Positions 20,742 through 62,392 of a stretch of DNA of 64,000 nucleotides are shown here, in pieces (position 1 is the first letter of the stretch; each line of letters begins with the position of its first letter). Both the position numbers and the translations under genes were made by a program. The stretch lies in the NCBI GenBank assembly GCA_036873755.1, contig JAVTVY010020362.1:1-64000 (forward strand), in the 5' to 3' direction. The stretch comes from Hanleya hanleyi (lineage: Eukaryota; Mollusca; Polyplacophora; Lepidopleurida; Hanleyidae). The notes under the pieces are model-generated. The model did not search any database, was not told the origin of the DNA, and saw only the letters and a list, made by a program, of their open reading frames with translations.

Positions 20742-21070
20742 CTAACTGTTTTCATTATTTTCTGATGAAAGTTTCAATAGACTATCTGCATACTGGAAGT
20801 CTTCACTGTTTTCATATTCACTAATGTCAAGGGCCACCACACAACTTTCCCGGACAACCCGTTCTTTGTCGTGCAGATATGTCTGTAGTACAGCTGTACT
20901 CTCCTGTGTAGCTATGGACCCCAAAGCTTCAGCACACTCATGTCTAACCATTGGGCTCTCCGACACATCCTGTAAATTCTTAGACAACTGATGAACACAG
21001 GCATCACTCTGCATCTGTCCTAACACATAGGCAATCTCATGCCTGAATAGAGCACTGGTACAATGCAACC
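20742..21070 (-). CDS. DOHH: Deoxyhypusine hydroxylase, exon 4 (last coding exon)
   Basis: C-terminal HEAT-like half of DOHH. It contains the third and fourth iron-coordinating His-Glu pairs, [13 protein letters not shown] and [11 protein letters not shown], and ends [25 protein letters not shown] before a TAA. The acceptor is TTTCAG on the minus strand (21071-21076), and the exon begins with two bases that complete a glycine codon started by the G at the end of exon 3 (phase 1 junction). The sequence matches the family through [16 protein letters not shown]. The intron upstream is almost 13.6 kb. Confidence 0.95.
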
Positions 21071-21165
21071 CTGAAATATCAATAGATGTGGTAAATCATT
21101 TGTTAAAATACCATCAACCCCAATAATTAAAATTAAATTTGTCATATTAATGAAGTTAAGACCTG

Positions 21166-24100
21166 GTGCCAACACTGCCTTCTCCCCACCAATGTTATAT
21201 TTCATACCTTCAGCTAGTGCCAACATTGCCTTCTCCCCACCAATGTAATATTTATTACCTTCAGCTAGTGTCGACGCCACCTTCTCCCCACCAAGGTTAT
21301 ATTTCATACCTTCAGCTGGGGTCAACACTGCCTTCTCCCCACCAATGTTATATTTCATACCTTCAGCTGGTGTCAACACTGCCTTCTCCCCAACAATGTA
21401 ATATTTATTACCTTCAGCTAGTGCCAACAATGCCTTCTCCCCACCAATGTAATATTTAACACCTTCAGCTGGTGTCGACACCGCCTTCTCCCCACCAAGG
21501 TTATATTTCATACCATCAGCTAGTGCCAACACGGCCTTCTCCCCAACAATGTAATATTTATAACCTTCAGCTACATGTAGTGCCAACAATGCCTTCTCCC
21601 CACCAATGTAATATTTAATACCTTCAGCTGGTGTCGACACCGCCTTCTCCCCACCAAGGTTATATTTCATACCTTCAGCTGGTGCCAACAATGCCTTCTC
21701 CCCAACAATGTAATATTTATTACCTTCAGCTAGTGCCAACAATGCCTTCTCCCCACCAATGTAATATTTAACACCTTCAGCTGGTGTCGACACCGCCTTC
21801 TCCCCACCAAGGTTATATTTCATACCTTCAGCTAGTGCCAACACGGACTTCTCCCCAACAATGTACTATTTATAACCTTCAGCTATTGCCAACAATGCCT
21901 TCTTCCCACCAATGTAATATTTAATACCTTCAGCTGGTGTCGGCACCGCCTTCTCCCCACCATGGTTATATTTCATACCTTCAGCTGGTGCCAACACTGC
22001 CTTCTCCCCACCAATGTAATATTTAATACCTTCAGCTGGTGTCGACTCCGCCTTCTCCCCACCAATGTTATATTTCATACCTTCAGCTGGTGCCAACAAT
22101 GCCTTCTCCCCACCAATGTAATACTTCATACCTTCAGCTTGTGCCAACACTACCTTTCCCCACCAATGTAATATTTAATATCTTCAGCTAGCACCAACAC
22201 TGCATTCTTCACACCAATATTATTTCATACCTTCAGCTGGTGTCGACACTGCCTTTTCCCCACCAATGTTATATTTCATACCTTCAGCTATAGTGCCAAC
22301 ACTGCCTTTTCCCCACCAATGTAATATTTCATACCTTCAGCTAGTGCCAACACCGCCTTCTCCCCACCAATGTAATATTTCATACCTTCAGCTGGTGCCA
22401 ACAATGCCTTCTCCCCACCAATGTAATATTTATTACCTTCAGCTAGTGCCAACAATGCCTTCTCCCCACCAATGTTATATTTCATACCTTCAGCTAGTGC
22501 CAACACTGCCTTCTCCACACCAATGTTATATTTCATACCTTCAGCTTGTGCCAACAATGCCTTCTCCCCACCAATGTAATATTTCATACCTTCAGCTAGT
22601 GCCAACACTGCCTTCTCCCACCAATGCAATATTTCATACCTTCAGCTAGTGCCAACACTGCCTTTTCCCCACCAGTGTTATATTTCATACCTTCAGCTAT
22701 AGTGCCAACAACGCCTTCTCCCCACCAATGTAATATTTCATACCTTCAGCTAGCGCCAACACTGCCTTTTCCCCACCAATGTTATATTTCACACCTTCAG
22801 CTGGTGCCAACAATGCCTTCTCCCCACCAATGTTATATTTCATACCATCAGCTGGTGCCAACAATGCCTTCTCCCCATCAATGTTATATTTCATACCTTC
22901 AGCTTGTGCCAACAATGCCTTTTCCCACCAATGTAATATTTCATACCTTCAGCTAGTGTCAACACTGCCTTCCAATGTTATATTTCATACCTTCAGCTAG
23001 TTATACTTCATAACTAGTAACCATCAATGTTATATTTCATACCTTCAGCTTGTGCCAACAATGCCTTTTCCCACCAATGTAATATTTCATACCTTCAGCT
23101 AGTGTCAACACTGCCTTCCAATGTTATACTTCATACCTTCAGCTTGTGCCAACACTATCTTTTCCCCACCAATGTTATATTTCATACCTTCAACACTGCC
23201 TTCTCCCCACTCATGTTATATTTCATACCTTCAGCTGGTGTCATACTGCCTTCTCTCCACCAATGTTATATATTTCAACACTTCAGCTAATGTCAACACT
23301 GCCTTCTCACCACCCATGTTTTATTTCATACCTTCAGCTAGTGTCGACACTGCCTTCTCCCCACCAATGTTATATTTCATATCTTCAGCTGGTGCCAACA
23401 ATGCCTCATCCCGAACAATGTAATATTTAACACCTTCAGCTGGTGTCGACACCGCCTTCTCCCCACCAAGGTTATATTTCATACCATCAGCTAGTGCCAA
23501 CACTGCCTTCTCCCCAACAATGTAATATTTATAACCTTCAGCTACATGTAGTGCCAACAATGCCTTCTCCCCACCAATGTAATATTTAATACCTTCAGCT
23601 GGTGTCGATACCGCCTTCTCCCCACCAAGGTTATATTTCATACCTTCAGCTGGTGCCAACACGGACTTCTCCCCAACAATGTACTATTTATAACCTTCAG
23701 CTAGTGCCAACAATGCCTTCTCCCCACCAATGTAATATTTAATACCTTCAGCTGGTGTCGACACCGCCTTCTCTCCACCAAGGTTATATGTCATACCTTC
23801 AGCTGGTGCCAACACTGCCTTCTCCCCACCAATGTACTATTTAATACCTTCAGCTGGTGTCGACCCCGCCTTCTCCCCGCCAATGTTATATTTCATACCT
23901 TCAGCTGGTGCCAACAATGCCTTCTCCCCACCAATGTAATACTTCATACCTTCAGCTTGTGCCAACACTACCTTTTCCCCACCAATGTAATATTTAATAC
24001 CTTCAGCTAGCACCAACACTGCATTCTTCACACCAATGTTATTTCATACCTTCAGCTGGTGTTGACACTGCCTTTTCCCCCACCAATGTTATATTTCATA

Positions 24101-27100
24101 CCTTCAGCTATAGTGCCAACACTGCCTTTTCCCCACCAATGTAATATTTCATACCTTGAGCTAGTGCCAACACTGCCTTTTCCCCACCAGTGTTATATTT
24201 CATACCTTCAGCTATAGTGCCAACAACGCCTTCTCCCCACCAATGTAATATTTCATACCTTCAGCTAGCGCCAACACTGCCTTTTCCCCACCAATGTTAT
24301 ATTTCACACCTTCAGCTGGTGCCAACAATGCCTTCTCCCCACCAATGTTATATTTCATACCTTCAGCTGGTGCCAACAATGCCTTCTCCCCATCAATGTT
24401 ATATTTCATACCTTCAGCTTGTGCCAACAATGCCTTCTCCCCACCAATGTTATATTTCATACCTTCAGCTAGTGTCAACACTGCCTTTTCCACACCAATG
24501 TTATATTTCATACCTTCAGCTGGTGCCAACAATGCCTTCTCCTCACCAATGTTAAATTTCATACCTTCAGCTTGTGCCAACACAGCCTTTTCCACACCAA
24601 TGTTATATTTCATACCTTCAGCTGGTGCCAACAATACCTTCTCCCCACCAATGTAATACTTCATACCTTCAGCTTGTGCCAACACTATCTTTTCCCCACC
24701 AATGTTATATTTCATACCTTCAACACTGCCTTCTCCCCACTCATGTTATATTTCATACCTTCAGCTGGTGTCACCACTGCCTTCTCTCCACCAATGTTAT
24801 ATATTTCAACACTTCAGCTAGTGTCAACACTGCCTTCTCACCACCCATGTTTTATTTCATACCTTCAGCTAGTGTCGACACTGCCTTCTCCCCACCAATG
24901 TTATATTTCATACCTTCAGCTGGTGCCAACAATGCCTTCTCCCCAACAATGTAATATTTAACACCTTCAGCTGGTGTCGACACCGCCTTCTCCCCACCAA
25001 GGTTATATTACATACCATCAGCTAGTGCCAACACTGCCTTCTCCCCAACAATGTAATATTTATAACCTTCAGCTACATGTAGTGCCAACAATGCCTTCTC
25101 CCCACCAATGTAATATTTAATACCTTCAGCTGGTGTCGACACCGCCTTCTCCCCACCAAGGTTATATTTCATACCCTCAGCTGGTGCCAACAATGCCTTC
25201 TCCCCAACAATGTAATATTTATTACCTTCAGCTAGTGCCAACAATGCCTTCTCCCCACCAATGTAATATTTAACACCTTCAGCTGGTGTCGACACCGCCT
25301 TCTCCCCACCAAGGTTATATTTCATACCTTCAGCTAGTGCCAACACGGACTTCTCCCCACCAATGTAATATTTAACATCTTCAGCTGGTGTCGACACCGC
25401 CTTCTCCCCACCAATGTAATATTTAATACCTTCAGCTGGTGTCGACACCGCCTTCTCCCCACCAAGGTTATATTTCATACCATCAGCTGGTGCCAACACT
25501 GCCTTCTCCCCACCAATGTAATATTTAATACCTTCAGCTGGTGTCGACCCCGCCTTCTCCCCACCAATGTTATATTTCATACCTTCAGCTGGTGCCAACA
25601 ATGCCTTCTCCCCACCAATGTAATATTTAATACCTTCAGATAGCACCAACACTGCATTCTTCACACCAATGTTATTTCATACCTTCAGCTGGTGTCGACA
25701 CTGCCTTTTCCCCACCAATGTTATATTTCATACCTTCAGCTATAGTGCCAACACTGCCTTTTCCCCACCAATGTAATATTTCATACCTTGAGCTAGTGCC
25801 AACACCGCCTTCTCCCCACCAATGTAATATTTCATACCTTCAGCTGGTGCCAACAATGCCTTCTCCCCATCAATGTAATATTTCATACCTTCAGCTGGTG
25901 CCAACAATGCCTTCTCCCCACCAATGTTATATTTCATACCTTCAGCTAGTGCCAACACTGCCTTCTCCTCACCAATGTTATATTTCATACCTTCAGCTTG
26001 TGCCAACAATGCCTTCTCCCCACCAATGTAATATTTCATACCTTCAGCTATTGCCAACACTGCCTTCTCCCACCAATGCAATATTTCATACCTTCAGCTA
26101 GTGCCAACACTGCCTTTTCCCCACCAGTGTTATATTTCATACCTTCAGCTATAGTGCCAACAACGCCTTCTCCCCACCAATGTAATATTTCATACCTTCA
26201 GCTAGTGCCAACACTGCCTTTTCCACACCAATGTTATATTTCATACCTTCAGCTGGTGCCAACAATGCCTTCTCCCCATCAATGTTATATTTCATACCTT
26301 CAGCTTGTGCCAACAATGCCTTCTCCCCACCAATGTAATATTTCATACCTTCAGCTAGTGTCAACACTGCCTTTTCCACACCAATGTTATATTTCATACC
26401 TTCAGCTGGTGCCAACAATGCCTTCTCCCCACCAATGTTAAATTTCATACCTTCAGCTTGTGCCAACACTGCCTTTTCCACACCAATGTTATATTTCATA
26501 CCTTCAGCTGGTGCCAACAATGCCTTCTCCCCACCAATGTAATACTTCATACCTTCAGCTTGTGCCAACACTATCTTTTCCCCACCAATGTTATATTTCA
26601 TACCTTCAACACTGCCTTCTCCCCACTCATGTTATATTTCATACCTTCAGCTGGTGTCACCACTGCCTTCTCTCCACCAATGTTATATATTTCAACACTT
26701 CAGCTAGTGTCAACACTGCCTTCTCACCACCCATGTTTTATTTCATACCGTCAGCTAGTGTCGACACTGCCTTCTCCCCACCAATGTTATATTTCATACC
26801 TTCAGCTAGTGCCAACAATGCCTTCTCCCCACCAATGTTATATTTCACACCTTCAGCTAGTTGGTTGTTTGAACTTTAACGTCGCGCCTAACCTTATTGG
26901 TCACACGGCGACGATGACCCAAACAAACATACCCTAACAAAACCCTAATCCTAACAAAAACCGAACCAATACTACAAAAAACAATTTGAATTTCGAATTT
27001 TGAAAATTAGGCTCTACAGACACTGATCACAATGGATCCTCAGAGAGCTACCTTCAGCTAGTGTCAACATTGCCTTCTCCCCACCCATGTTATATTTCAT

Positions 27101-27640
27101 ACCTTCAGCTGGTGTCAACACTGCCTTCTCCCCATCAATGTTATATATTTCATACCTTCAGCTAATGTCGACACTGCCTTTTGTCCACCAATGTTATATT
27201 TTGTACCTTCAGCTAGTGCCAACACTGCGCCTTCTCCCCACCAATGTAATATTTCATACCTTCAGCTAGTGTCAACACTGCCTTCTCCACACCAATGTAA
27301 TATTTCATATCTTCAGCTAGTGTCATCACTGCCTTCTCCCCACCAATGTAATATTTCATATCTTCAGCTAGTGTCATCACTGCCTTCACTCCACCAATGT
27401 TATATTTCATACCTTCAGCTGGTGCCAACGCTGCCTTTTCCCCACCAATGTTATATTTCATACCTTCAGCTAGTGCCAACACCGCCTTCTCCCCACCAAT
27501 GTAATATTTCATACCTTCAGGTGGTGCCAACACTGCCTTTTCCCCACCAATGTTATATTTCATACCTTCAGCAGATGACAACACTGCCTTCTCCCCACCA
27601 GTGTTATATTTCATACCTTCAGCTGGTGTCGACACTGCCT
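21166..27640 (-). repeat. 51-bp minisatellite derived from the DOHH exon 3 end and its splice donor (left block)
   Basis: Over 120 units (estimated as length/51). On the minus strand each unit reads NIGGEKAVLALAEG|MKY, where the bar marks the position of the real exon 3 donor: CTGAAG followed by GTATGAAAT. The codons before the bar are those of DOHH exon 3, so the array is a tandem copy of an exon-intron junction. Since 51 is divisible by three, long ORFs appear on both strands, but they are products of periodicity. Unit variants (ATAACATTGG/ATATTACATT, GCAGTGTTGG/GCATTGTTGG) are shuffled in higher-order blocks. A 190-bp foreign island lies at about 26868-27055. Confidence 0.9.
26868..27055. 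other. Non-repeat island in the DOHH minisatellite
   Basis: About 190 bp unlike the 51-bp unit, starting TTGGTTGTTTGAACTTTAAC and including GTCGCGCC, CACACGGCGACGATG and an A-rich (ACAAAACCCTAATCCTAACA) part. The start resembles the TTGTTTAACGTCGC sequence common in mollusc repeats, so it may be a truncated SINE-like insertion. The CCCTAA-like run is too short to be telomeric. Confidence 0.4.
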
Positions 27641-27654
27641 TCCCCCCACCATTG

Positions 27655-28194
27655 TGTTATGGTATTGTAGTTTACTATTAGACATTGTAGATGTTTCTGG
27701 AATGATAGAGCTACGTAGGATTGTCCACGTGCTGTTATCTCGGTTAATCACTTCGAGCTTTCTGGAAGCTAATTGTAATTGTATCTGGGTCAGATCATAC
27801 GTCAATGCTGTATGTTGTGGAATGATCTCGAATGCCCCACAGAGTATAAATAGCCTAACATTCAGTGATCGAGGAGGGAATTCAAACTGGCTTTATGTGG
27901 GTGCGTTATACTTACTATGTTACTTTTGCTGCGGATTGTATACTCCTGTGAATTGACTTTGGCTGCTGTGTTATCTACGTGATTGAACTGTCGGAAACTG
28001 GACAACAACTGAGCAGTGTTCAAATGTCAAACTACAGAAACGCAATGGAGAGATTCCTGCACGTCAGTACAGACTGTGAAATATACACCGGTATAGCATT
28101 GAACAGTAGGACTGTATTTCTCATTTATTTGTTGTATTAACCTTGCTTAATTTGTATATGTTACGTTTTTTCTATTATCGTTTATGACGTAACA
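27655..28194 (+). repeat. 5' LTR of Gypsy-2
   Basis: Starts TGTTATGGTATTGTAGTTTA and ends near TATGACGTAACA. It is about 90% or more identical by eye to the 3' LTR at 33045-33658. Right after it comes TCGGGGGCCTGCCCGCGA (28199-28216), which resembles a primer-binding site for tRNA-Pro (pattern TGGGGGCTCGTCC) with changes. The insertion interrupts the 51-bp array. Confidence 0.85.
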
Positions 28195-28289
28195 AAAATC
28201 GGGGGCCTGCCCGCGAGCTTTGTTTACTTTACAGCTGCCAGCTGATCAGCTTTGCAACATAGTTCTAAATTGATACATTGTCTAAATTT

Positions 28290-29480
28290 GTGAGGTCAGG
28301 GAGTGTCATTTGAACCAGCACAGTTTGCTTAAAAGCCTAGTCGGGAGGTATTTGATGAATCACGCAAAGATGATTTGTTCGCGCTGTGTAGATTCCTAGA
28401 AATTAAAGCTAAAACATCTTTGAGAAAGCAAGAAATTAAGAAACTCATTATTAAACATTTTGTTAGCAAACAACTTTGAGATGAAAGTGATTTTGATTTA
28501 ACTGAGGAAACAGCTGATGATTTGGAAATAAAGAAATTAGAATTGCAAAATCAGCGGGAATTAAAGAAATTAGAATTAGAAAAAGAGGAAAGAGAGAAAG
28601 AAAGACAGTTTCAATTAGAGAGAGAAAAGTTAGAAAAAGACAGAGAATTAGAGAGAGAAAGGGAAGAAAGAAACTTTCAGTCAGAAATGAAGCATAAGGA
28701 ATTACAGTCGCAAACAAGTCCTCTTGCACATGCACCTGTACAATCACAATCAAAATTTGATGCGGCTCGTCAAATACGTCTCGAAGAAGTTGATAAATAT
28801 TTTCTGCATTTTGAAAAAATTGCTGAAAATTTAAACTGGCCAAAAGAAAATTGGAGTTTACTTCTTCAAAGTGTTTTGATCGGAAAGGCAAGGGACATTT
28901 ACACTCAATTGCCGGAAGCAAGCATCAAATTATGATATAGTGAAGGGTTTAATCCTTAAAAGTTATGAATTAGTTCCTGAAGCTTCTAGACAAAAGTTTC
29001 GTAGTTGTGAAAAAGGAAACTCGCAGACTCATGTAGAATTTGCTCGTTCAAAAGAACAGTTATTTGATAGGTGGTGTGCTTCGGTTAAAATTGACAACCA
29101 ATTTGAAAGCCTTAGACAGCTTATGCTGGTAGAAGAATTTAAAAGGTGTATCCATGGTGATATTAGAACATTTCTTGATGAAAAGAATGCCAACACTTTA
29201 GACAAAGCAGCACGATTTGCTGATGAATACGCCCTGACACACAAATTATCATTTGTCAATGCTGTTAAGCCAAGTTCATTCCAGTCTAATCTCTCGGGTA
29301 ACAAACCCAGTTCTTTCTCAGGGCCTAAAACTTTTAATACCAGTTACAAAGGTCAAAGGTCAAACACAAAATCTCAGTCACCCACTTTTAACCCTCAAAA
29401 TAAGTCTCCCGTTTGCAGCTATTGTAAGGAGGAGGACATTTAATGGCTCATTGTTTTAAATTGAAAAGAAAACAACATGA
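28290..29480 (+). pseudogene. Gypsy-2 gag (frameshifted)
   Basis: Begins with a helical N-terminal part (DDLFALCRFLEIKAKTS) broken by a TGA at about 28478. A strongly charged coiled coil follows (Glu/Lys/Arg-rich, 28522-28690), then a capsid-like segment (KYFLHFEKIAENLNWPKENW, GKARDIYTQLPEA). A one-base frameshift near 28930 moves on to LKSYELVPEASRQKFRSCEK, a SCAN-like region seen in some metazoan gypsy gags. The zinc knuckle CSYCKEE...MAHC is split by a further frameshift near 29437. Confidence 0.8.
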
Positions 29481-29689
29481 TCAAGCCTTTCAAAAGCCCA
29501 GTGGTGTTCTCACTTCAAGATCTATACCCAAGCAGGTTAGTGACGTTCATAATGTATATGACGTTAAGATGGCCAAGGACACTGTTCCTATTAGTTCTAT
29601 CAAGGACAATGTTGAAAGTTTTTCAAATCCTGTTAGGGAGATTTTTGAATCATTTATCCACAATGGTGGTGTCACTTTCAAGTGATTTT

Positions 29690-30157
29690 TCTAATGCTAC
29701 TCCTGTGAAGATTTTGCGAGACACGGGCGCGTCCCAGTCTCTTTTGTTGATAGATACTTTGCCGTTTTCTGACTCTTCATATGCAGACAGTAATGTCCTG
29801 ATTAAAGGGGTAGATTCTGTAAATTATACACCCGTTCCGCCCCATAACGTTCATCTGTCTTCCGACTTGATTTCTGGAACTGTTACGGTGGGTATTAAAG
29901 GTAGTTTACCATTTGAGGGTGTTCAGTTACTTCTTGGTAATGATCGTGCGGGAGATAAGGTCGGGGTTAACCCGATTGTAACTGACAAGCCTTGTTTGGA
30001 TCAGATCCATGATCCAGTTGAAGACGAAATTCAGGGTTTGTATCCTGCTTGTGCAGTTACTAGAGCCATGAGTAAATTGGCTGAGGAGTCTGAAAAGTCT
30101 CTTAAAGATGACGTCATCGATAACGTTTGTTTAGCTCTGACACTTTCGTGTATTTAA
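29690..30157 (+). pseudogene. Gypsy-2 aspartic protease
   Basis: Contains the active-site box ILRDTGASQSLLL (D-T-G-A-S) and a later LLLGNDRAGDKVG, matching the ILG(N)D element near the C-terminus of gypsy proteases. The frame continues to ACAVTRAMSKL, typical of the linker after the protease, and stops at about 30157. A gap to the next open segment (30306) still shows diverged pol sequence in other frames. Confidence 0.8.
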
Positions 30158-30305
30158 ATGATGAGGCTGATAAGCCATATTTTGATAGCAAATTGGAATG
30201 TTCTAATGACAAAATTTCAAAATCACAGCTGGTTAATGAACAGCATAGTGACAAGGACATTTCCAAGTTGTTTGACAGGGCAGTAGATAGTGTGATGTAA
30301 CTCAA

Positions 30306-31733
30306 GTGCCTGTGTGTTACTTTTGGAAGAATGATGTCCTTATGCTCAAATGGCTACCGCCAGATGTGTCACCTGATGATGAGTGGGCAGTTAAGTATCA
30401 GATTGTAGTATCAAATTCATATCGTTCAGATATCCTCAGACTAGCCCATGAAACACCTCTTTCAGGCCATTTAGATGTAAACAAAACATATTACAAAATT
30501 GTAAATCATTTCTATCAGCCAAATTTAAAGAAAGATGTTACAGAATTTTGTAGGTCATGCCACACATGCCAAATGGTAGGAAAACCAAACCAAACCATAC
30601 CAAAGGTCCCTCTACAACTAATCCCTGCATTTGGGGAAGCCTTTAGTAGGGTGATTATAGATTGTGTTGGTCCATTACCGAAAACAAAGTCAGGCAATCA
30701 ATACATGTTAACAAAGATGTGTGCTTCAACCAGGTTCCCCGAGGCCATTCCTTTACGGAATATTAAGGCAAAAACTATTGTTAAGGCCTTAGTTAAGTTT
30801 TTCACACTTGTCGGCCTACACCAGTCTGTTTAGTCTGATCAGGGATCTAATTTCATGTCAGGAATCTTTCAACAAGTCATGCATGAATTGGGAATAAAGC
30901 AGTACAAATCACCTGCATACCACCCAGAAAGCCAAGGCGCATTAGACAGATTTCACCAAACATTAAAGAACATGATTAGAACTTATTGTTTTGACACTGA
31001 GAAAGACTGGGATAAAGGCATACATTTGTTATTGTTTGCTGTTAGAGAGTCTGTTCAAGAGTCTTTAGGCTTCAGTCCATTTGAATTAGTCTTTGGTCAT
31101 ACAGTTAGAGGACCACTTAAACTGTTAAAGGATAAGTTCCTAGACAGTGATCTTGACTCGTGTAATCTCTTACAATATGTGTCGGACTTTCGCACCAGGC
31201 TGACTAAAGCACGTGATTTGGCCATGTCAAATTAAAAGTCAGCGCAAAAATATATGAAAATAACCTATGATATACATGCCCTTAAACGAAGTTTCAAACC
31301 TGGTGAGAAGGTACTGGCTTTTCTGCCTATTTCTGGTAATCCACTTAAGGCTAGATATTATGGTCCTTATGTCATTGAAAAGAAATTAAGTGACCTTAAT
31401 TATGTAATTCAGACTCCTGACAGGCGTAAAAACAAACAGTTATGTCATGAAAATATGTCAAAGTTATACATAGACAGAGATAGCACTAACAGTACTGTAC
31501 AGCCTGTAAGTGTAGTTAGTTCTGACCCTGATAATAATGAAACTTGTGAAGAGCCCATGACAGCGGCGAAATTACAGAACTCTGACATTCTACTTAATTT
31601 GGATTCCAAGTTGTGTCATCTTGTACCAGCGCGTCAGGAAGAACTTCGAACTCTTCTCAGTCAATATGAACATTTGTTTTCCGATATCTCCACTCGGACT
31701 GATACAATTTCACATCAATCTCGGAGATTCTAA
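30306..31733 (+). pseudogene. Gypsy-2 integrase (located before the reverse transcriptase)
   Basis: An integrase with an HHCC zinc finger (HETPLSGHLDVNKTYYK, CRSCHTCQ), the first catalytic Asp in VIIDCVGPLPKTKSGNQY and the second in SDQGSNFMSG, just after an in-frame TAG at about 30831. The third position sits in YHPESQGALDRFHQ, where family members have Glu before RF. Here it is Asp, so the DDE triad is altered. The C-terminal part (LAFLPISGNPLKARYYGPYVI) is a GPY/F module. The integrase lies upstream of the reverse transcriptase, the reverse of ordinary Ty3/gypsy order and characteristic of the Gmr1-like group. Confidence 0.9.
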
Positions 31734-32408
31734 TCCAGTGAAGCAACATCCATATCGTTTGAATCACATTAAACAATACTACCTGAAAAAAGAGATTCAG
31801 TATTTATTGGACAATGACGTGATTGAACCAAGTAATAGTAACTGGAGTTCACCTTGTATCCTCGTTCCAAAGCCAGATGGCAGTTACAGGATGTGTACTG
31901 ACTACAGAAAGGTGAACACATCGACCAAAACAGACACATTCCACGCAGTGACGATTGCATTGATAAAGTGGGAAGTGCCAAGTTTGTGTCAAAGTTTGAT
32001 CTTCTGAAAGGATTTTGGCAAGTTCCACTGACAGATCGTGCAAAGGAGATATCAGCATTCGTCGCTTAAGAGGGTCTGTTCCAGTACAAAGTCATGCCAT
32101 TTGGAATGAAAAATTATCCAGCCACGTTCCAGCGTCTCATCAACCATGTTACTTCTGGTTTGGAAGGATGTGAGACTTACATTGATGACGTCATTGTCTA
32201 TAGCGATACATGGAAAGATCATCTACAGAGAATTCGCGCACTATTCAATCGGCTGAGTGACGCCAAGCTGACAGTCAACCTTGGAAAAAGTGAATTTAGA
32301 CAAGCACGGGTGACATTCTTGGGTCATGCTGTAGGTCAGGGTCAGGTAAAACCTGTAGATGCTAAGGTTAGTGCTATCTCGCTATACCAATATGTAAGAG
32401 ACAACTGA
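31640..32408 (+). pseudogene. Gypsy-2 reverse transcriptase
   Basis: Fingers and palm: NPVKQHPYRLNHIKQYYLKK, WSSPCILVPKPDGSYRMCTD and YRKVN. A frame change near 31950 is followed by KFVSKFDLLKGFWQVPL and, after a stop at about 32066, by EGLFQYKVMPFGMKNYPATF and CETYIDDVIVYSDTWKDHL, with the YIDD catalytic box intact. The thumb region (VTFLGHAVGQGQVKP) follows. At least two frame breaks and one stop show the copy is dead. Confidence 0.85.
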
Positions 32409-33000
32409 TGCGTTTCTTGGGTATGGCTGGTTTTGTCCAAATTTTTCAGATATTACTGAACCTTTAACTCAATTCTTAAGAAAGAGGGTAACTTTTGTTT
32501 GGACCGATGAATGTGAATCAGCTTTTGAAAACCTGAAAGCCATACTTAAGAGCGCGGCAGTTCTTTCAGCACCAGATTTTGATTCACCTTTTCAACTGGC
32601 TGTAGATGCTAGTGATGTTGCTGCTGGTGCCGTTTTGTTACAAGAAGGTATAGATGGTGTAGATCACCCAATATGTTATTTTTCATGTAAATTTGACAAA
32701 CATCAGAGAAATTATTCTACAATTGAGAAAGAATGTTTGGCAATGATATTGGCTTTACAACATTTTGATGATTGTGTTACTTCTTCATCATTGCCAATTA
32801 CTGTATTCAGTGATCACAATCCACTTGTTTTCATAAGATGAAAAACAAAAATCAAAGATTGTTGAAATGGAGTTTGGTGTTACAAGAATTCAATATTGAA
32901 ATCAGACATATTAAGGACAATTTGATTGCTGATTGTGTCTCGCATGTAATGTACATATGTTTGTCAACATTTTTGCTGTTGTAATATAGATCTTTTTGCA
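32409..33000 (+). pseudogene. Gypsy-2 RNase H
   Basis: After a frame change the thumb/connection continues (ITEPLTQFLRKRVTFVWTDE). RNase H then follows with LAVDASDVAAGAVLLQEG, CYFSCKFDKHQRNYSTIEKE and ITVFSDHNPLVFI, which hold the Asp, Glu and Asp positions expected of the domain. The final part (LLKWSLVLQEFNIEIRHIKD) is in another frame after a stop near 32839. Pol ends here, directly before the 3' polypurine tract, as expected when integrase is upstream. Confidence 0.85.
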
Positions 33001-33044
33001 ATAATAGTTCCAAGTTTGAAACTTTCTTTTTTTAAGAGGAGGCG

Positions 33045-33658
33045 TGTCATGGTATTGTAGTTTACTATTAGACATTGTAGATGTTTCTGGAATGATAGAG
33101 CTACGTAGGCTTGTCCACATACTGTTATGTGGGTTAATCACTTCGAGCTTTCTGGAAGCTTATTGTAATTGTATCTGGGTCAGATCATACGTCAAAGCTG
33201 TATGTTGTGGAATGATCTTGAATGCCCCGTATAGTATACCCCATTCAGTGATCGAGAAGGGAATTCAAACTGGCTTTATGTGGGTGCATTATACTTACTA
33301 TGTTACTTTTGCTGCGGATTGTATACTCTTGTGAATTGACTTTGGCTGCTGTGTTATCTACGTGATTGAACTGTCGGAAACTGGACAACAACTGAGCAGT
33401 GTTCAAATATCAAACAACAGAAACGCAATTTCTGCACCTCGGCACGGACTGTAGAGAGATTTCTGCACGTCAGTATGGACTGTGAAATATACACCGGTTT
33501 AGCATTGAACAGTAGGACTGTATTTCTCAAGTTATTTGTTGTATTATCCTTGCATAATTTGTATATGATTTTAGTATTGTAAATAAATATTTGATTATTA
33601 ATCCCTGACTTCACAGAAGTTTTCTGTTACGTTTTTTCTATTATCATTCATGACATAA
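33045..33658 (+). repeat. 3' LTR of Gypsy-2
   Basis: Preceded by a purine-rich run TTAAGAGGAGGCG (33032-33044). It begins TGTCATGGTATTGTAG and ends near CATGACATAA, after which the 51-bp array resumes in the same unit (ATGGTATATTTTATACCTTC). Relative to the 5' LTR it has extra copies of a GCAC(G/C)TC(A/G)G block near 33435-33475 and about 50 additional bp near 33565-33620 that include AATAAATATTTG. Confidence 0.85.
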
Positions 33659-33664
33659 ATGGTA

Positions 33665-34745
33665 TATTTTATACCTTCAGCTAGTGCCAACACTGCCTTC
33701 TCCCCACCAATGTAATATTTCATACCTTCAGGTGGTGCCAACACTGACTTTTCCCCACCAATGTTATATTTCATATCTTCAGCTAGTGTCAACACTGCCT
33801 TATACCCACCAATGTTATATTTCATACCTTCAGCTAGTGCCAACACGGCTTTTCCCCACCAATGTTATATTTCATATCTTCAGCTAGTGTCAACACTGCC
33901 TTCTCCCCACCAATGTTAAATTTCATACCTTCAGCTAGTGTCAACACTGCCTTCTCCCCACCAATGTTATATTTAATACCTTCAGCTAGTGCCAACACTG
34001 CCATTTCCCCACCACTATTATATTTCATACCTTCAGCTAATGTCAACACTGCCTTCTCCCCACCAATGTTATATTTCATACCTTCAGCTAGTGCCAACAC
34101 TGCCTTCTCCCCATCAATGTTATATTTCATACCTTCAGCTAGTGCCAACACTGCGCCTTCTCCCCACCAATGTAATATTTCATACCTTCAGCTAGTGCCA
34201 ACACTGCCTTCTCCCCACCAATGTTAAATTTCATACCTTCAGCTAGTGTCAACACTGCCTTCTCCCGACCAATGTTATATTTAATACCTTCAGCTAGTGC
34301 CAACACTGCCATTTCCCCACCACTATTATATTTCATACCTTCAGCTAATGTCAATACTGCCTTCTCCCCACCAATGTTATATTTTATACCTTCAGCTAGT
34401 GTCAACACTGCCTTCTCCCCATCAATGTTATATTTCATACCTTCAGCTAGTGCCAACACTGCGCCTTCTCCCCATCAATGTTATATTTCATACCTTCAGC
34501 TAGTGCCAACACTGCGCCTTCTCCCCACCAATGTAATATTTCATACCTTCAGCTAGTGCCAACACTGCCTTCTCCCCACCAATGTTATATTTCATACCTT
34601 CAGCTGGTGTCAACACTGCCTTTTACCCACCAATGTTATATTTCATACCTTCAGCTAGTGTCAACACTGCCTTTTCCCCACCAATGTTATATTTCATACC
34701 TTCAGCTAGTGCCAACACTGCCTTCTCTCCACCAATGTTTCGCAA
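33665..34745 (-). repeat. 51-bp DOHH splice-donor minisatellite (right block, adjoining exon 3)
   Basis: About 21 units of the same 51-bp repeat, running without interruption into the coding end of exon 3. The last two units on the right read ...GGEKAVLALAEGMKYNIGGEKAVLTLAEGMKYNIGG and then a TAA, created where GGGGAGAAGG became GGGTAAAAGG (about 34624). A larger duplication inside the block is visible: about 33890-34170 resembles 34200-34480. Confidence 0.9.
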
Positions 34746-34940
34746 TGAAAACATTGCTCTGTAACGCTGGAATAATGGTAACTCTTCGTCCAGCAAAATC
34801 CTCTTTAGTGATTCAACATCTTGTTCTCTTGAAGGAGGGGCTGGGTCTATGGAGGAATAATGTCGCCTGTCAAAGCTCTTTTGTTCTTTACCTATCAGCC
34901 AGTGTATTCTGTTAATGGCCAACTGACAGGTCTCTGCAAC
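34700..34940 (-). CDS. DOHH: Deoxyhypusine hydroxylase, exon 3
   Basis: The middle of DOHH (VAETCQLAINRIHWLIGKEQ, IDPAPPSREQDVESLKRILL, PLFQRYRAMFSLRNIGG, EKAVLALAE plus one base). It spans the linker between the two HEAT halves and the start of the second half. The acceptor is TTTTTAAG on the minus strand (34941-34948). The first phase-compatible donor is GAAG|GTATGA (exon end 34700). A second identical donor 51 bp further (exon end 34649) is also in phase and would add 17 residues before joining exon 4. Exon length 241 bp. Confidence 0.93.
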
Positions 34941-34944
34941 CTTA

Positions 34945-35015
34945 AAAATATCACCATATCTATATATATCACCATATCTATATATATCACCATATCTATA
35001 TATCATCATATCTAT
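34945..35015. repeat. 18-bp tandem repeat in DOHH intron 2
   Basis: About four copies of ATCACCATATCTATATAT, just upstream (minus sense) of the exon 3 acceptor. Confidence 0.85.
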
Positions 35016-35067
35016 ATATAGAAACCATATAGTCAACATGGTAAGGAGTCAGGTCCTGTTTGAAAAT

Positions 35068-42300: not shown

Positions 42301-42332
42301 AGGCTGTATAGTGAGACAGACAAACGGTGTTG

Positions 42333-42620: not shown

Positions 42621-43124
42621 GAGTACAGTCTTATACTCGGCACAATACAGTAAGAACTAGATCCTCAACAGAATACAGTCTTATACTCGGCACAATACAG
42701 TAAGAACTAGATCCTCAACAGAATACAGTCTTATACTCGGCACAATACAGTAAGAACTAGATCCTCAACAGAGTACAGTCTTATACTCGGCACAATACAG
42801 TAAGAACTAGATCCTCAACAGAATACAGTCTTATACTCGGCACAATACAGTAAGAACTAGATCCTCAACAGAGTACAGTCTTATACTCGGCACAATACAG
42901 TAAGAACTAGATCCTCAACAGAATACAGTCTTATACTCGGCACAATACAGTAAGAACTAGATCCTCAACAGAGTACAGTCTTATACTCGGCACAATACAG
43001 TAAGAACTAGATCCTCAACAGAATACAGTCTTATACTCGGCACAATACAGTAAGAACTAGATCCTCAACAGAGTACAGTCTTATACTCGGCACAATACAG
43101 TAAGAACTAGATCCTCAACAGAAT
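42621..43124 (+). repeat. 50-bp minisatellite upstream of C9orf72
   Basis: Ten nearly perfect copies of a 50-bp unit, GA(G/A)TACAGTCTTATACTCGG followed by CACAATACAGTAAGAACTAG and ATCCTCAACA. From 42721 on the third base alternates A/G, giving a 100-bp higher-order period. The array starts four bases after the stop codon of the small ORF and ends 43 bp before the C9orf72 start codon. Confidence 0.97.
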
Positions 43125-43766: not shown

Positions 43767-43993
43767 GTACATATATATATATTCATTTGCCATCATAGAA
43801 GTCATGTGACTTAGGAAACTGACTTCAATCAAATACAGTATAGTGCACCATATAGGCCTATAAATAACAACTCGCACTGTAAGAGCTATGTTACTTAGAT
43901 TAGCGCACCAGAATGGCATGTTTGTTAAGCCTTAATGTAGAGCAGACATTTTGTTTTAAAATTAACATACAGCTCTCTCATACATGTATTATT

Positions 43994-55438: not shown

Positions 55439-55442
55439 TTAA

Positions 55443-56093
55443 AGTGATCGTAAACCCTCAAGTAAAGTTTACGTAAAATGAAAGACCAATGTTGCGAACA
55501 GTATGGGAAAATATTTATTTTAATTTTTTACGATTTTATTACACAGAATAAACTGCAATTAAAGCATGGTATTCTATGGTGGTCTGTTGCAATCATATTT
55601 AGGTCCAGTGACGTCACACTGCCTTAATACTTATATTTCAAACTGTGTATGGACTTTCCAATGCGTGATTCAAGCTTAAGGTGTGTACATTTTGAGTTTC
55701 AACACAGACCCACTGTTCCAATGTGCATGTTTCACCAAAATCTGGGAGATGGTGACTCATGAGTGTCAAGTCAATTTAAATCTTGCATTTACTTTCCCAG
55801 ATTTTGGAACATGCACATTGGAACAGTGAGCCTGTGTTGAAACTCAAAATGTACACACCTTAAGCTTGAATTAAACATTGGAAAGTGCATACAAAGTTTG
55901 AAACATATGTATTAACGCAGTGTGACGTCACTGGACCTAAATATGATCGCAACAGACCACCATAGAATACCATGCTTTAATTGCAGTTTACTCTGTGTAA
56001 TAAAATCGTAAAAAATTAGAATAAATATTTTCCCACACTGTTCGCAATGATCTTTCATTTGAGGGAAACTTTACTTGAGGGTTTACGATCACT
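55443..56093. mobile_element. 651-bp palindromic MITE flanked by TTAA, in C9orf72 intron 3
   Basis: Ends AGTGATCGTAAACCCTCAAG and CTTGAGGGTTTACGATCACT, with arms of about 300 bp mirrored across a spacer at about 55745-55795. It is flanked on both sides by TTAA (55439-55442 and 56094-56097). TTAA duplication is the hallmark of piggyBac-type insertion. The arms differ by scattered substitutions, suggesting some age. No coding capacity. Confidence 0.8.
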
Positions 56094-56304: not shown

Positions 56305-56421
56305 ATTATATCCACCTTAGCCTTCTTCAACAGTCCGACAGAGAGAGTTTGTTCTCGTCACGTACAGAGTCAATCCTCTTACCCCTATCACCAGGACTTG
56401 TGGGTACAGGGAATACTGCTT
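56305..56421 (+). CDS. C9orf72: C9orf72, coding exon 4
   Basis: 117 bp, 39 codons, phase 0: IISTLAFFNSPTERVCSRHV and QSQSSYPYHQDLWVQGILL. It corresponds to the vertebrate LCLFLTPAERKCSR...SGLFVQGLL segment. The acceptor is TTTTACCAG and the donor CTT|GTAAGT. The reading frame continues past this donor without a stop for about 290 codons, through the tandem repeat that follows. Confidence 0.92.
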
Positions 56422-56461
56422 GTAAGTAAACTAGTCCCTCAGTCTGTAAATACATGTAATC

Positions 56462-57246: not shown

Positions 57247-57615
57247 CACAGAGTCGGGAATGAGATATACATGTATGATATGAGAGAGAATTGAAGCAAT
57301 TTTTGCGAGAATGAAATTCTTTCCCATAATTCTTGCACATTATAGAATGAAGCTTGTTATTCATTCTATAATCAGCTTCATGTTGAGCTGGACCATCTAT
57401 ATGCATACAACTGTTCGAATTCACAATCATATAAATGGGCACTTTAAATGTAATCCTCTGAGAAAGTAACATGGAATTAAACGGAACCACTTTAGATTCA
57501 TGGTAGTAATTTCATAATCTGAAGTTAGCAAATCTTCGCAAGTGGATTGGCATTATTTTTTATTATTGGTGAATTATAGAATATTCATAGTAGCTTTGTC
57601 TGTGACGGTCTCATA
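57247..57615. other. C9orf72 intron 4, between arrays
   Basis: About 370 bp without a gene. A small hairpin, ATTATAGAATGAA with TTCATTCTATAAT, lies at about 57340-57373. Confidence 0.5.
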
Positions 57616-59374
57616 TTTCTTCCAGGGTTCGGCCGGTGTAGTAGACATTCCAACCATGTCTGTATAATAATTGTCTCATATTCCTTTCAGGGCTCAGCTG
57701 GTGTATTAGACATTGCGGCCATGTCTGTATAATGACTGTCTTCTGTATTCCTTCCAGGGTTCGGGTGGTGTATTAGACATTCCAGCCATGTCTGTATAAT
57801 AATTGTCTCATATTCCTTTCAGGGCTCAGCTGGTGTATTAGACATTGCGGCCATGTCTGTATAATGACTGTCTCCTGTATTCCTTCCAGGGTTCGGGTGG
57901 TGTATTAGACATTCCAGCCATGTCTGTATAATAATTGTCTCCTATTCCTTCCAGGGCTCGGGTGGTGTATTAGACATTCCAGCCATGTCTGTATAATAAT
58001 TGTCTCATATTCCTTTCAGGGCTCAGCTGGTGTATTAGACATTCCGGCCATGTCTGTATAATGACTGTCTTCTGTATTCCTTCCAGGGTTCAGGTGGTGT
58101 ATTAGACATTCCAGCCATGTCTGTATAATAATTGTCTCCTATTCCTTCCAGGGCTCGGGTGGTGTATTAGACATTCCAGCCATGTCTGTATAATAATTGT
58201 CTCATATTCCTTTCAGGGCTCAGCTGGTGTATTAGACATTCCGGCCATGTCTGTATAATGACTGTCTTCTGTATTCCTTCCAGGGTTCAGGTGGTGTATT
58301 AGACATTCCAGCCATGTCTGTATAATAATTGTCTCCTATTCCTTCCAGGGCTCGGGTGGTGTATTAGACATTCCAGCCATGTCTGTATAATAATGTCTCC
58401 TGTATTCCTTCCAGGGCTCAGGTGGTGTATTAGACATTCCAGCCATGTCTGTATAATGGCTGTCTCCTATTCCTTCCAGGGCTCAGACTTTCCAGCCATA
58501 TCTGTATAATAATGTCTCATATTCCTTCCAGGGTTCGACTGGTGTATTAGACATTCCAGCCATGTCTGTATAATGGCTGTCTCCTGTATTCCTTCCAGGG
58601 CTCGGGTGGTGTATTAGACATTCCAGCCATGTCTGTATAATGACTGTCTCCTATTCCTTCCAGGGCTCGGGTGGTGTATTAGACATTCCAGCCATGCCTG
58701 TATAATGGCTGTCTCCTGTATTCCTTCCAGGGCTCCGGTGGTGTATTAGACATTCCAGCCATGTCTGTATAATGGCTGTCTCCTGTATTCCTTCCAGGGC
58801 TCGGGTGGTGTATTAGACATTCCAGCCATGCCTGTATAATGGCTGTCTTCTGTATTCCTTCCAGGGCTTGGGTGGTGAATCAGATTTCCAGCCATATCTG
58901 TATAATGACTGTCTCCTGTATTCCTTCCAGGGTTCGACTGGTGCATTAGACATTCCAGCCATGTCTGTATAATGGCTGTCTCCAGTGTTCCTTCCAGGGC
59001 TTGGGTGGTGAATCAGACTTTCCAGCCGTATCTGTATAATGACTGTCTCCTGTATTCCTTCCAGGGTTCGGCTGGTGTATTAGACTTTCAAGCCATATCT
59101 GTATAATGACTGCCTCCTGTATTCCTTCCAGGGTTCGGCTGGTGTATTGGACTTTCAAGCCATATCTGTATAATGACTGTCTCCTGTATTCCTTCCAGGG
59201 TTTGGCTGGTGTATCAGACTTTCCAGCCATATCTCCTTTCAGAGTTAGGCTGGTGTACTAGACATTCCAGCCATATCTGTATAATGACTGTCTCCTGTAT
59301 TCCTTCCAGGGTTCAGGTGGTATATTAGACATTCCAGCCATATCTATATAATGACTGTCTCCTATTCCTTCCAG

Positions 59375-59586
59375 GTAGCCGAGTGGTCTAAGGCGCTTCG
59401 CTGGTGACCGCTAGCCTCACACCGCTGAATCGGCACGGGTTCGAGCCCAGCTGGTCCATGTGTGAAAGTTTGTCAGTTACTTGCCGAAGGGTGGTGCTCC
59501 GGCTTCCTCCACCAACGAAAATGACTGTCACCATATGAGTGAAACAAACTTGAGTGTGACATTAAGCCAAATTCCCTCCCTCCCTC
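59375..59586 (+). mobile_element. tRNA-derived SINE inserted in the acceptor array
   Basis: The tRNA-like head GTAGCCGAGTGGTCTAAGGC has an A box (TAGCCGAGTGG, 59376-59386) and a B box (GGTTCGAGCC, 59438-59447), as in Leu/Ser-type tRNAs. A conserved central part follows (GGCTTCCTCCACCAACGAAA, GAGTGAAACAAACTTGAGTG), widespread in mollusc SINEs, with a CCCTCCCTCC tail. The 8-bp target duplication CCTTCCAG lies at 59367-59374 and 59587-59594. The tRNA part is not a functional tRNA gene because its body is extended and imperfect. Confidence 0.88.
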
Positions 59587-59696
59587 CCTTCCAGGGCTCG
59601 GGTGGTGTATTAGACATTCCAGCCATGTCTGTATAATTACTGTCTCCTGTATTCCTTCCAGGGTTCTGGTGGTGTATTAGACATTCCAGCCATATC

Positions 59697-60012
59697 GCGG
59701 GTGGTTGGGTGGGTTCAGGTTCCTGTTGCTTCAATGCATTTTGCTGAGAAGCAACAGGAACTTGACAATGTGATGTCTAGCACTGTAATATCACTTGTCT
59801 TTATTGCACCATGTAAGCGTCTTGTCTGTGTCTTGTGTGCTGTCCTTAGTGTTTTATAGGGTGGATGGAGGGTGTCTGGTTCCATGCTGCTTCAAAGATT
59901 TCTTCTTTGAAGTAGCAGGAACACAACTGGGCTGGGTGGTGCTTAGTTGGTTCGTCGTGATATAGCTGAAATATTGTTGAAAGCGACGTTAAATTCTATT
60001 CACTCACTCACT
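59697..60012 (+). mobile_element. Second retroposon (SINE-like, CACT tail) in the acceptor array
   Basis: 316 bp flanked by an 11-bp target duplication CCAGCCATATC (59686-59696 and 60013-60023). It ends GAAATATTGTTGAAAGCGAC, GTTAAATTC and CACTCACTCACT, the tail type frequent in gastropod repeats. Internal inverted segments GTTGCTTC...GAAGCAAC and GCTGCTTCAAAG...CTTTGAAGTAGC are present. No coding sequence. Confidence 0.8.
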
Positions 60013-60711
60013 CCAGCCATATCTGTATAATGACTGTCGCCTGTATTCCTTCCAGGGTTCGGGTGGTGTATTGGACTTTCAAGCCATATCTGTATAATTA
60101 CTGTCTCCTGTATTCCTTCCAGGGTTCGGCTGGTGTATTGGACTTTCAAGCCATATCTGTATAATGACTGTCTCCTGTATTCCTTCCAGGGTTTGGCTGG
60201 TGTATCAGACTTTACAGCCATATCTCCTTCCAGAGTTAGGCTGGTGTACTAGACATTCCAGCCATATCTGTATAATGACTGTCTCCTGTATTCCTTCCAG
60301 GGTTCAGGTGGTGTATTAGACATTCCAGCCATATCTATATAATGACTGTCTCCTGTATTCCTTCCAGGGTTCGGGTGGTGTATTAGACATTCCAGCCATA
60401 TCTATATAATGACTGTCGCCTGTATTCCTTCCAAGGTTCGGGTGGTGTATTAGACATTCCAGTCATATCTATATAATGACTGTCGCCTGTATTCCTTCCA
60501 GGGTTCGGGTGGTGTATTAGACGTTCCAGCCATATCTGTATAATGACTGTCGCCTGTATTCCTTCCAGGGTTCAGGTGGTGTATTAGACATTCCAGCCAT
60601 ATCTATATAATGACTGTCGCCTGTATTAATTCCAGGGTTCGGGTGGTGTATTAGACATTCTAGCCATATCTGTCATGTCTGTATAATGACTGTCTCCTGT
60701 ATTCCTTCCAG

Positions 60712-60911
60712 GGTTCGGGTGGTGTATTAGACATTCCAGCCAAAGAAATTCTCTGCAGCAAGTTCCCCACAACAATAATCAACATATCAAACCGTCAGAT
60801 TCAACAATCTCCGCCATGTAATATCCACGTACTCCGACATTACGAGACACTGAAAGATGAATTAGTCTGTCTACACTATAACCAGGGGGAGGAGCTCGTC
60901 TTCCCCAAGAG
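60712..60911 (+). CDS. C9orf72: C9orf72, coding exon 5
   Basis: 200 bp (66 codons plus two bases): GSGGVLDIPAKEILCSKFPT, TIINISNRQIQQSPPCNIHV, LRHYETLKDELVCLHYNQGE and ELVFPK. It matches the vertebrate PYPTTHIDVDVNTVKQMPPC and RRYMRSEL segments. The acceptor ATTCCTTCCAG is the last of the tandem series. The donor is AAGAG|GTACTG, and its two leftover bases AG join the C of exon 6 to give Ser. Confidence 0.93.
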
Positions 60912-61754
60912 GTACTGAGTTTATTACATTGTGCTTGTAGTCCCATTTTATTAACTCTCTCCCTCCAGGCCTGCGGGTGTGGGCTATTTTGACCCCCCGA
61001 AATATTTTCCTTTAGCAAGGGGGCTGAAACTTAACACAATATATATCCTTGGGACAAGCTCTACCAGAAAATGAAAAAACAAATCCAAGATGGCCACTTT
61101 GATGACATCACAGTGACATCATCTTCAAAACAGGCATGTTCTGGTAGATGTTTTCTTTGCAAAAACTACATGATAAATTATTATATAATAGTCTTTTGTT
61201 AAATAAAATAGATTTTGCCCAATTTTCATCAAAGAAAAGCAGGAATTTTGAAGGAAAATGACAAAAACATCATTTTTCTGGTACCCCACATGGCCGCCAT
61301 TTTGAATTTATCCATGATCCTTGTTTGGGGGTGGGGGCCTCCATCCCGGGCCAGGTAGGGTTAAGTAATTGCAAGACTTCATTCTCCTCAAATTTTATGA
61401 GAATCGAAACAAGTCCTCACAATCTTACTATACTGGAATCCACAGCAATCCTAAGCTATCATTCAATACAGAATACTAAATATAGGAATCTGGTGGATTC
61501 CCATGAATTATGATGGGATTATCATTCATATTTCTGTGAAAAAGCAAGCTCTGGAATTGAGAGGCAATGTTAAGTGAAACATTGGATTAAATTGTTCTGT
61601 TCAGAATTGTGAAAACAATCAAACTGTGCAAGAGATCTAAAACTGTAATAACTCATTTAATATTTCTATTCCAAAAACAGCTTAGCTTAGTTTTATTTAA
61701 GATTAGTTTGATTCAGGGACTAGAAGGTTTGATATTGTTTGTTATTTGTTCCAG
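60912..61754 (+). other. C9orf72 intron 5, no gene seen
   Basis: About 840 bp, partly resembling a dispersed repeat (GGCCGCCATTTTGAATTTAT, GACATCACAGTGACATCATC). No coding sequence recognised. Confidence 0.5.
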
Positions 61755-61809
61755 CATGTTCCATCCCGCTGATTATCCGGAGACCTATGTACAGACCTTG
61801 ATCAAGGAG
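61755..61809 (+). CDS. C9orf72: C9orf72, coding exon 6 (last in window)
   Basis: 55 bp: (S)MFHPADYPETYVQTLIKE, corresponding to the vertebrate FTPDLNIFQDVLHRDTLVK segment. The acceptor is TTTGTTCCAG and the first donor GAG|GTAAGA. The remaining C-terminal part of the protein (in vertebrates about 120 residues) must lie beyond 64000. Confidence 0.85.
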
Positions 61810-62392
61810 GTAAGACAAGATAACTAGAGACCTATGTTCAGACCTTGATCAAGGCGGTATAAAGACAAGATAACTAGAGACCTATATACAAACCTTGATC
61901 AAGAAGGTAAGACAAGATAACTAGAGACCTATGTACAAACCTTAATCGAGGAGGTAAGAGAAGATAACTAGAGACCTATGTACATGTACAATCCTTAATC
62001 AAGGAGGTAAGACAAGATAACTAGAGACCTATATACAAACCGTGATCAAGAAGGTAAGACAAGGTAACTAGAGACCGATGTACAAACCTTAATCAAGGAG
62101 GTAAGAGAAGATAACTAGAGAACTGTGTCCAAACCTCAATCAAGGAGGTAAGAGAAGATAACTAGAGACCTATGTACAAATCTTAAGGAGGTAAGACATG
62201 ATAACTAGAGACCAATGTTCAAACCTTAATCAAGGAGGTAAGAGAAGATAACTAGAGACCTATGTACAAACATTAATCAATGAGGTAAGAGAAGATAACT
62301 AGCGATCTATGTACAAACCGTAATCAAGGAGGTAAGACAAGATAACTAGAGACCTTCATGTGTATGAACAGACCTTGATCAAGGCGGTAAAA
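61782..62392 (+). repeat. 47-bp minisatellite copying the C9orf72 exon 6 end and splice donor
   Basis: About 13 units, each GAGACCTATGTACAAACCTT + AATCAAGGAG|GTAAGA(C/G)AAGATAACTA. The bar marks the exon 6 donor. The first unit is the real exon end, and the others are diverged copies (GACCGATG, AACTGTGTCC). Reading through the first donor gives VRQDN then TAG, so use of any later donor would truncate the protein. Confidence 0.93.

What the first reader, a model, noticed from the sequence alone, without database searches (positions are those of the whole stretch)
20742..62392. Three independent minisatellites in two adjacent genes are tandem copies of exon-intron junctions
The 51-bp array (DOHH exon 3 donor), the 63-67-bp array (C9orf72 exon 5 acceptor) and the 47-bp array (C9orf72 exon 6 donor) each have a unit made of some codons from the exon edge, the splice site and a little intron. 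The sequences, unit lengths, strands and splice-site types differ, so they did not arise from one another. Ordinary intronic minisatellites have no reason to include the coding edge. Seeing it three times in 40 kb suggests either a local tendency to amplify splice junctions (for example repair at transcription-associated breaks or R-loop ends) or selection for decoy sites. I know of no described class of this kind.
Basis: partly seen in the sequence, partly recalled or inferred. Interest (0 to 1): 0.9.

Follow-up and report, generated by a model that had tools for sequence, protein, structure and literature searches.

The report
Repeated splice junctions ("mirages") in mollusc
In this animal, probably a mollusc, short repeated blocks of DNA at gene edges are copies of the place where an exon meets an intron; such blocks were already known from amphioxus as "mirages", and here they turn up in several unrelated genes, nearly always on the downstream edge of the exon.

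Summary
Three arrays in DOHH and C9orf72 have units made of the exon edge, the splice site and some intron. A fourth, at the C9orf72 exon 7 donor, lies just past the window.

[quoted passage not shown] passages).

The tendency is not local. Among 140 kinesin and myosin exons of the same 2.48-Gb genome, strong arrays span a donor in 6 and an acceptor in none. Five lie elsewhere in 135 kb of unique non-exonic sequence. Random placement predicts 0.56 at donors (P 6e-6).

One mirage lies on two contigs with what looks like the same exon, in 8 and 12 matching copies, as for an unstable minisatellite. Selection for decoy sites is not supported.

Best reading: tandem duplications seeded across exon edges, tolerated because splicing still uses the exon-proximal site, over-represented at donors for an unknown reason.

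The parts
33658..34739 (-). DOHH exon-3 donor array, proximal part (51-bp unit, 21 copies); genuine donor between 34700 and 34699
   Evidence: TRF; gene model; unit reading
21166..27655 (-). DOHH exon-3 donor array, distal part (51-bp unit, about 127 copies), ends inside a copy about 100 bp before exon 4
   Evidence: TRF; unit reading
27656..33657 (+). about 6-kb insert inside the DOHH array with retroelement integrase pieces
   Evidence: Pfam Integrase_H2C2 and Integrase_p58_C; edges read
34700..34940 (-). DOHH exon 3, whose 3' edge is the source of the 51-bp unit
20742..21070 (-). DOHH exon 4 (last exon)
57608..60742 (+). C9orf72 exon-5 acceptor array (65-67-bp unit, about 40 copies), interrupted by two insertions (about 59375-59590 and 59700-60011)
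   Evidence: TRF; sequence; unit reading
60712..60911 (+). C9orf72 exon 5; its acceptor is the last copy of the array
   Evidence: reading frame
61780..62390 (+). C9orf72 exon-6 donor array (47-bp unit, 13 copies); first copy is the genuine donor at 61809/61810
   Evidence: TRF; unit reading; frame
61755..61809 (+). C9orf72 exon 6

Best explanation
These are mirages: minisatellites whose founding unit happened to straddle an exon-intron junction. A tandem duplication copied the exon edge plus the start (or end) of the intron; slippage or unequal exchange then multiplied it into the intron. Splicing continues to use the copy attached to the exon, so the extra copies are intronic passengers that evolve as non-coding DNA. 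In this genome such arrays are found in several unrelated genes and are over-represented at donors. Shown here: the anatomy, the open frames through the genuine copies, non-coding evolution of the copies, presence at six of 140 sampled donors, different copy numbers on a pair of contigs. Inferred: use of the exon-proximal site in mRNA, and slippage or exchange as the growth process. The lack of acceptor arrays is best explained, by inference, by tolerance: extra donors downstream of a complete exon are harmless, while extra acceptors upstream compete for the branch point.
For: Units read base by base. Frames of DOHH and C9orf72 run through the exon-proximal copies, and nearly all other copies would break them. 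Exon halves of copies are not clearly better conserved than intron halves (0.900 v 0.938; 0.908 v 0.898; 0.911 v 0.931); third codon positions are not freer in DOHH and only slightly in exon 6. Six further donor mirages in kinesin and myosin genes. Of ten unit lengths (51, 67, 47, 36, 65, 50, 39-40, 64-67, 107, 33) three or four are multiples of three, as chance would give. 8 v 12 matching copies on contigs C48281 and C37783. Same anatomy and haplotype length variation reported for amphioxus BflGb6.
Against: No RNA data, so use of the proximal site is unproven. Tolerance explains a lack of acceptor arrays but not an excess at donors over introns, so something else must raise the donor rate. 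The C9orf72 exon 5 array, with about 40 acceptor copies, is not easily tolerated under simple scanning. Growth away from the exon is only weakly marked: identity to the genuine copy falls, not steadily, in exon 6 (0.96 to 0.83), shows no clean slope in DOHH beyond the first eighth, and none in exon 5. A genome-wide pattern test gave no excess: three spaced copies of AGGTAAGT were found in 1923 places against 2596 for the reversed word, although that counts places, not arrays, and the pattern-chosen arrays inspected looked non-coding.
Confidence: 0.75

Rival explanations
1. Donor junctions are true hot spots of duplication (for example at R-loops, paused polymerase or transcription-associated breaks), so arrays are born there more often.
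For: 6 donor-spanning strong arrays against 1 lying wholly within 160 bp downstream of the same 140 donors and 0.56 expected. Copies are similar (85-98% matches), so the arrays look young, which favours birth over long survival.
Against: Exon part of the unit varies from 9 to 89 bp, so breakpoints are not tied to the splice site. No mechanism was tested; the sample is small.
Confidence: 0.3
2. Selection keeps the copies as decoy or spare splice sites.
For: Splice dinucleotides are among the better-kept positions in all three window arrays (7 of 51, 7 of 67, 8 of 47 positions, themselves included, as good or better).
Against: That is not clearly special; two of the four units on this contig would shift the frame, and almost all copies, if used, would bring stops or a frame shift; the genes are unrelated.
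Confidence: 0.07
3. The excess at exon edges is an artefact: the exon search prefers exons with repeated copies, and the reader picked a window with arrays.
For: The first look of the search keeps only the best candidates (65 of 227 myosin, 122 of 197 kinesin candidates scored); repeated exon pieces could raise a candidate. Cut-offs were set after seeing the data.
Against: The six cases rank 10, 19, 20 and 34 of 72 myosin rows and 29 and 48 of 124 kinesin rows, not at the margin. Tripling the junctions, flanks and background arrays still gives P 4e-4 for donors and 0.013 for any junction. Such a bias would favour acceptor arrays too, and none was found.
Confidence: 0.25
4. The arrays are assembly errors.
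For: Reads were not available.
Against: Copies differ from one another; the DOHH array holds a retroelement; one array is present, with different copy numbers, in two contigs.
Confidence: 0.03

Closest known systems
Amphioxus 'mirages' (Adh3, globins BflGb6 and BflGb9, PGBD5, troponin C)
   Same: Minisatellite-like arrays whose unit spans an intron/exon boundary, at donors or acceptors, imperfect copies, unit lengths 10-160 bp, haplotype length differences, several genes per genome (PMC3087553 passages; PMC3902484 passage).
   Different: Different phylum; here one array has about 148 copies over 7.6 kb; a sample of exons suggests a donor bias and an excess over background, which the passages read do not report. 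The amphioxus reports have RT-PCR data, this one has none.
Variable internal tandem repeats at exon-intron boundaries of human genes in segmental duplications
   Same: Minisatellite units (average 30 bp) at exon-intron boundaries (PMC2812944, passages).
   Different: Those were found as differences between paralogs and change exon or intron structure; here the exon stays intact.
Intron gain by tandem duplication (Rogers model; potato RdRp)
   Same: A tandem duplication that crosses an exon-intron boundary (PMC4974935, abstract and outline).
   Different: No sign of a new intron here; the arrays lie in introns between ordinary exons.
Ordinary intronic minisatellites of molluscs (abalone TSSK1-like intron 3, 27-bp unit)
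   Same: Long, length-variable intronic arrays (PMC6905558, passages).
   Different: The passages read place the unit in intron 3 and mention no coding edge in it.

Membership tests
Mirages | Tandem minisatellite-like array | tested here: met
   TRF (three arrays; six more)
Mirages | Unit spans an exon-intron boundary and carries the splice dinucleotide | tested here: met
   the exon 7 array includes only a few exon bases
Mirages | Either boundary can be duplicated | tested here: met
   one acceptor array (C9orf72 exon 5) and nine donor arrays in all; acceptors 0 of 140 in the sample
Mirages | Copy number differs between haplotypes | tested here: inconclusive
   8 v 12 matching copies on contigs C48281 and C37783; that these are haplotypes rather than recent paralogs is inferred from matching exon rows
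Mirages | Regular splicing is not disturbed | not testable with these tools
   no RNA; only the open reading frames
Mirages | Somatic length instability | not testable with these tools
   no reads
Intron gain by tandem duplication | A new intron arises inside former exon | not tested
   intron positions were not compared with relatives' genes
Coding tandem repeat | Array translated in frame | tested here: not met
   stops end the open frame after the first added copy in DOHH and at once in exons 5 and 6; no clear codon-position pattern

The most novel reading that the evidence does not exclude
In this genome the exon side of 5' splice sites is a genome-wide birthplace of minisatellites: about 4% of donors (6 of 140 sampled) carry a junction-spanning array, about ten times the intron background, and acceptors carry almost none. 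That would make thousands of genes carry unstable spare donors, and would point to a process that amplifies or retains exon-end DNA in one direction only.
Probability: 0.4. Interest if true: 0.75.

Novelty: new member of a known kind. Interest (0 to 1): 0.55.

Why it matters
Mirages were named in amphioxus (reported earlier for Adh3, per PMC3087553), and the only mirage reports I found are from lancelets. Finding them in several unrelated genes of a probable mollusc shows that they are not a lancelet oddity, gives a density estimate with a background, and suggests a donor/acceptor asymmetry. They are natural experiments on how the spliceosome chooses among dozens of similar sites, and candidate raw material for new exons and introns. 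They are also a practical trap for gene predictors.

Tried and rejected
Decoy selection: rejected on the conservation profile. Coding repeat: rejected. One ancestral array copied to three places: rejected, since the units share no sequence by eye and a 31-mer of the DOHH unit was found in 87 places, all listed ones on this contig. Genome-wide donor word test: one search gave no excess; its control listing was asked for ten times and never answered. Arrays chosen by that word and inspected on four contigs looked non-coding; for a fifth TRF showed no array with the word. Copy counts for two other arrays were asked for and not answered. A third exon family (PF00118) was asked for twice and not answered. 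In some searches minus-strand loci were taken as flipped; one search showed that they are not, and L059 was then corrected from acceptor to donor. Plakobranchus DOHH P0001 (425 aa) carries a repeat of the last exon's protein, not of this unit. L157, L133 and L057 have weak arrays near an edge and were not counted as mirages; L133 may be a degenerate donor array.

Sample bookkeeping: 89 of 124 kinesin rows and 51 of 72 myosin rows were examined. Three pairs among the 140 exons are near-identical; none of the six mirages is in a pair. One search used 154,008 non-exonic bases, in which stretches shared by neighbouring exons were counted more than once; one search recounted 135,453 unique bases and gives the figures used here (they are slightly weaker than one search's). 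The score cut-off of 200, the period range and the donor/acceptor split were chosen after seeing the data. With score >= 80 the donor count is 6 against 1.07 expected (P 5e-4), the unit length of the 22 unique other arrays being set at 35 bp. Against arrays near the edges only, P is 0.016.

Full report
What is there. The window carries DOHH on the minus strand and C9orf72 on the plus strand. DOHH exons join in frame into 309 aa, and the last exon matches a solved deoxyhypusine hydroxylase. C9orf72 exons 1-7 join in frame into 437 aa with AG/GT at every internal border and score with Pfam C9orf72-like at 2e-40. DOHH homologues place the animal among molluscs: the best named hits, at 66-72% identity, are molluscs (class of Plakobranchus looked up, the others recalled). 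The species is unknown. The genome has 2.48 Gb in 52,793 contigs, and the window's contig is 70,838 bp long.

The arrays. The DOHH exon 3 donor array has a 51-bp unit of 40 nt exon and 11 nt intron. It covers about 7.6 kb in two parts around a retroelement insert. The C9orf72 exon 5 acceptor array has a 65-67-bp unit and about 40 copies; the genuine acceptor is the last one. The exon 6 donor array has a 47-bp unit and 13 copies; the genuine donor is the first one. A fourth array, 36-bp unit, begins at the exon 7 donor outside the window and includes only a few exon bases. So four of the 19 splice junctions in the two gene models carry an array. This figure is biased, because the window was chosen for its arrays.

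Which copy can be used. Of 39 recognised exon 5 acceptor copies only the last gives an open exon in the right frame; of 13 exon 6 donor copies only the first does; of 114 recognised DOHH donor copies the first two do, the second adding 17 residues. So a working protein needs the exon-proximal copy, or in DOHH possibly the next one.

How the copies evolve. In 146, 39 and 12 non-genuine copies the exon half is not clearly better kept than the intron half, and codon positions do not differ as in coding sequence. The splice dinucleotide survives in 137, 38 and 12 of them, which is good but matched or beaten by 6, 6 and 7 other dinucleotide positions. In the exon 6 array identity to the genuine copy falls, not steadily, from 0.96 to 0.83 with distance; the other two arrays show no clean slope. 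No sign of selection for function was found.

Is it local or general? I took exons without looking at repeats: hits of the myosin motor and kinesin motor families, with 250 or 1500 bp on each side, 140 exons in all (89 of 124 and 51 of 72 rows). Tandem Repeats Finder at score 200 or more and period 20-140 found 11 arrays. Six span a donor (L093, L107, L153, L049, L058, L059), none an acceptor, five lie elsewhere in 135,453 unique non-exonic bases. I read the six base by base: for example the kinesin exon ending in ...LGGNCQTVMIAAV is repeated with its GTGAGT donor at period 50, and two different myosin genes have unrelated arrays at the same SNPI(L/M)E junction. Random placement of the 11 arrays predicts 0.56 at donors (P 6e-6) and 1.1 at any junction (P 3e-4). 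Tripling the junctions, flanks and background arrays, as if mirage exons were always found and others one time in three, leaves P 4e-4 and 0.013. Against arrays close to the edges only, P is 0.016. Donor against acceptor is 6:0 (P 0.03), or 9:1 with this contig (P 0.02). The sample is small and the cut-offs are post hoc, but the direction held in each of these tests. A cruder genome-wide word count showed no excess and is reported as such.

Instability. The unit of the L093 array was searched in the whole genome: 8 matches on C48281 and 12 on C37783, each running on from a matching kinesin exon (exon rows on both contigs). They are probably two haplotypes; the contigs themselves were not compared. 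This is the length variation expected of a minisatellite, and it shows the array in two separate contigs.

What is known. [quoted passage not shown] PMC3902484 passage). The original Adh paper was not found in the library under the identifier I tried and is known here only through these two. Variable minisatellites at human exon-intron borders (PMC2812944 passages) and intron gain by a border-crossing duplication in potato (PMC4974935 abstract) are related. Ten searches listed no title that is a mollusc report of this kind; the library is open-access only and some listings were cut (15 of 44 papers, 20 of 3,242).

Mechanism. Shown: anatomy, frames, non-coding evolution, recurrence, copy-number difference. 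Inferred: a founding tandem duplication across the junction, growth by slippage or unequal exchange, and use of the exon-proximal site. The unit's exon part varies from 9 to 89 bp and unit lengths are multiples of three no more often than chance, so neither the splice signal nor the reading frame sets the unit. The lack of acceptor arrays fits tolerance: extra donors beyond a complete exon are harmless, extra acceptors ahead of it are not. Tolerance alone does not explain why donors exceed introns. That excess is the open question, and an annotation-based scan would settle it.

Noticed in passing
contig G000:C17805:66551-66690 (L039, just past the window): Fourth junction array of the pair of genes: 36-bp unit x about 4 starting at the C9orf72 exon 7 donor.
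   Followed up: yes
43991-52700: 40-bp minisatellite with 217 copies (8.7 kb) fills most of C9orf72 intron 1; it ends 59 bp before exon 2 and touches no exon.
   Followed up: partly
42624-43124: Ten near-identical 50-bp copies start just after the stop codon of a small ORF (42315-42617, membrane-protein-like by eye, no Pfam match) and end about 40 bp before the C9orf72 start codon used here.
   Followed up: no
34948-35020: 18-bp array ends 7 bp before the DOHH exon 3 acceptor without including exon, so exon 3 has arrays on both sides.
   Followed up: no
L049 and L153: Two different myosin genes carry unrelated mirages (64-67 and 39-40 bp) at the same conserved exon border (SNPI(L/M)E).
   Followed up: partly
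17075-18219 and 63057-63829: Dispersed 113-119-bp tandem family with AGGTCAAAGGTCA-like motifs, in opposite orientation at the two places.
   Followed up: no
59375-59590 and 59700-60011: Two insertions in the exon 5 array, the first with a tRNA-like head by eye (SINE-like).
   Followed up: no
18560-18990 and 55540-56030: Long inverted repeats, foldback or MITE-like, seen by eye.
   Followed up: no
3076-4689 (-) and 40329-41546 (-): Reverse transcriptase ORFs (Pfam RVT_1).
   Followed up: no
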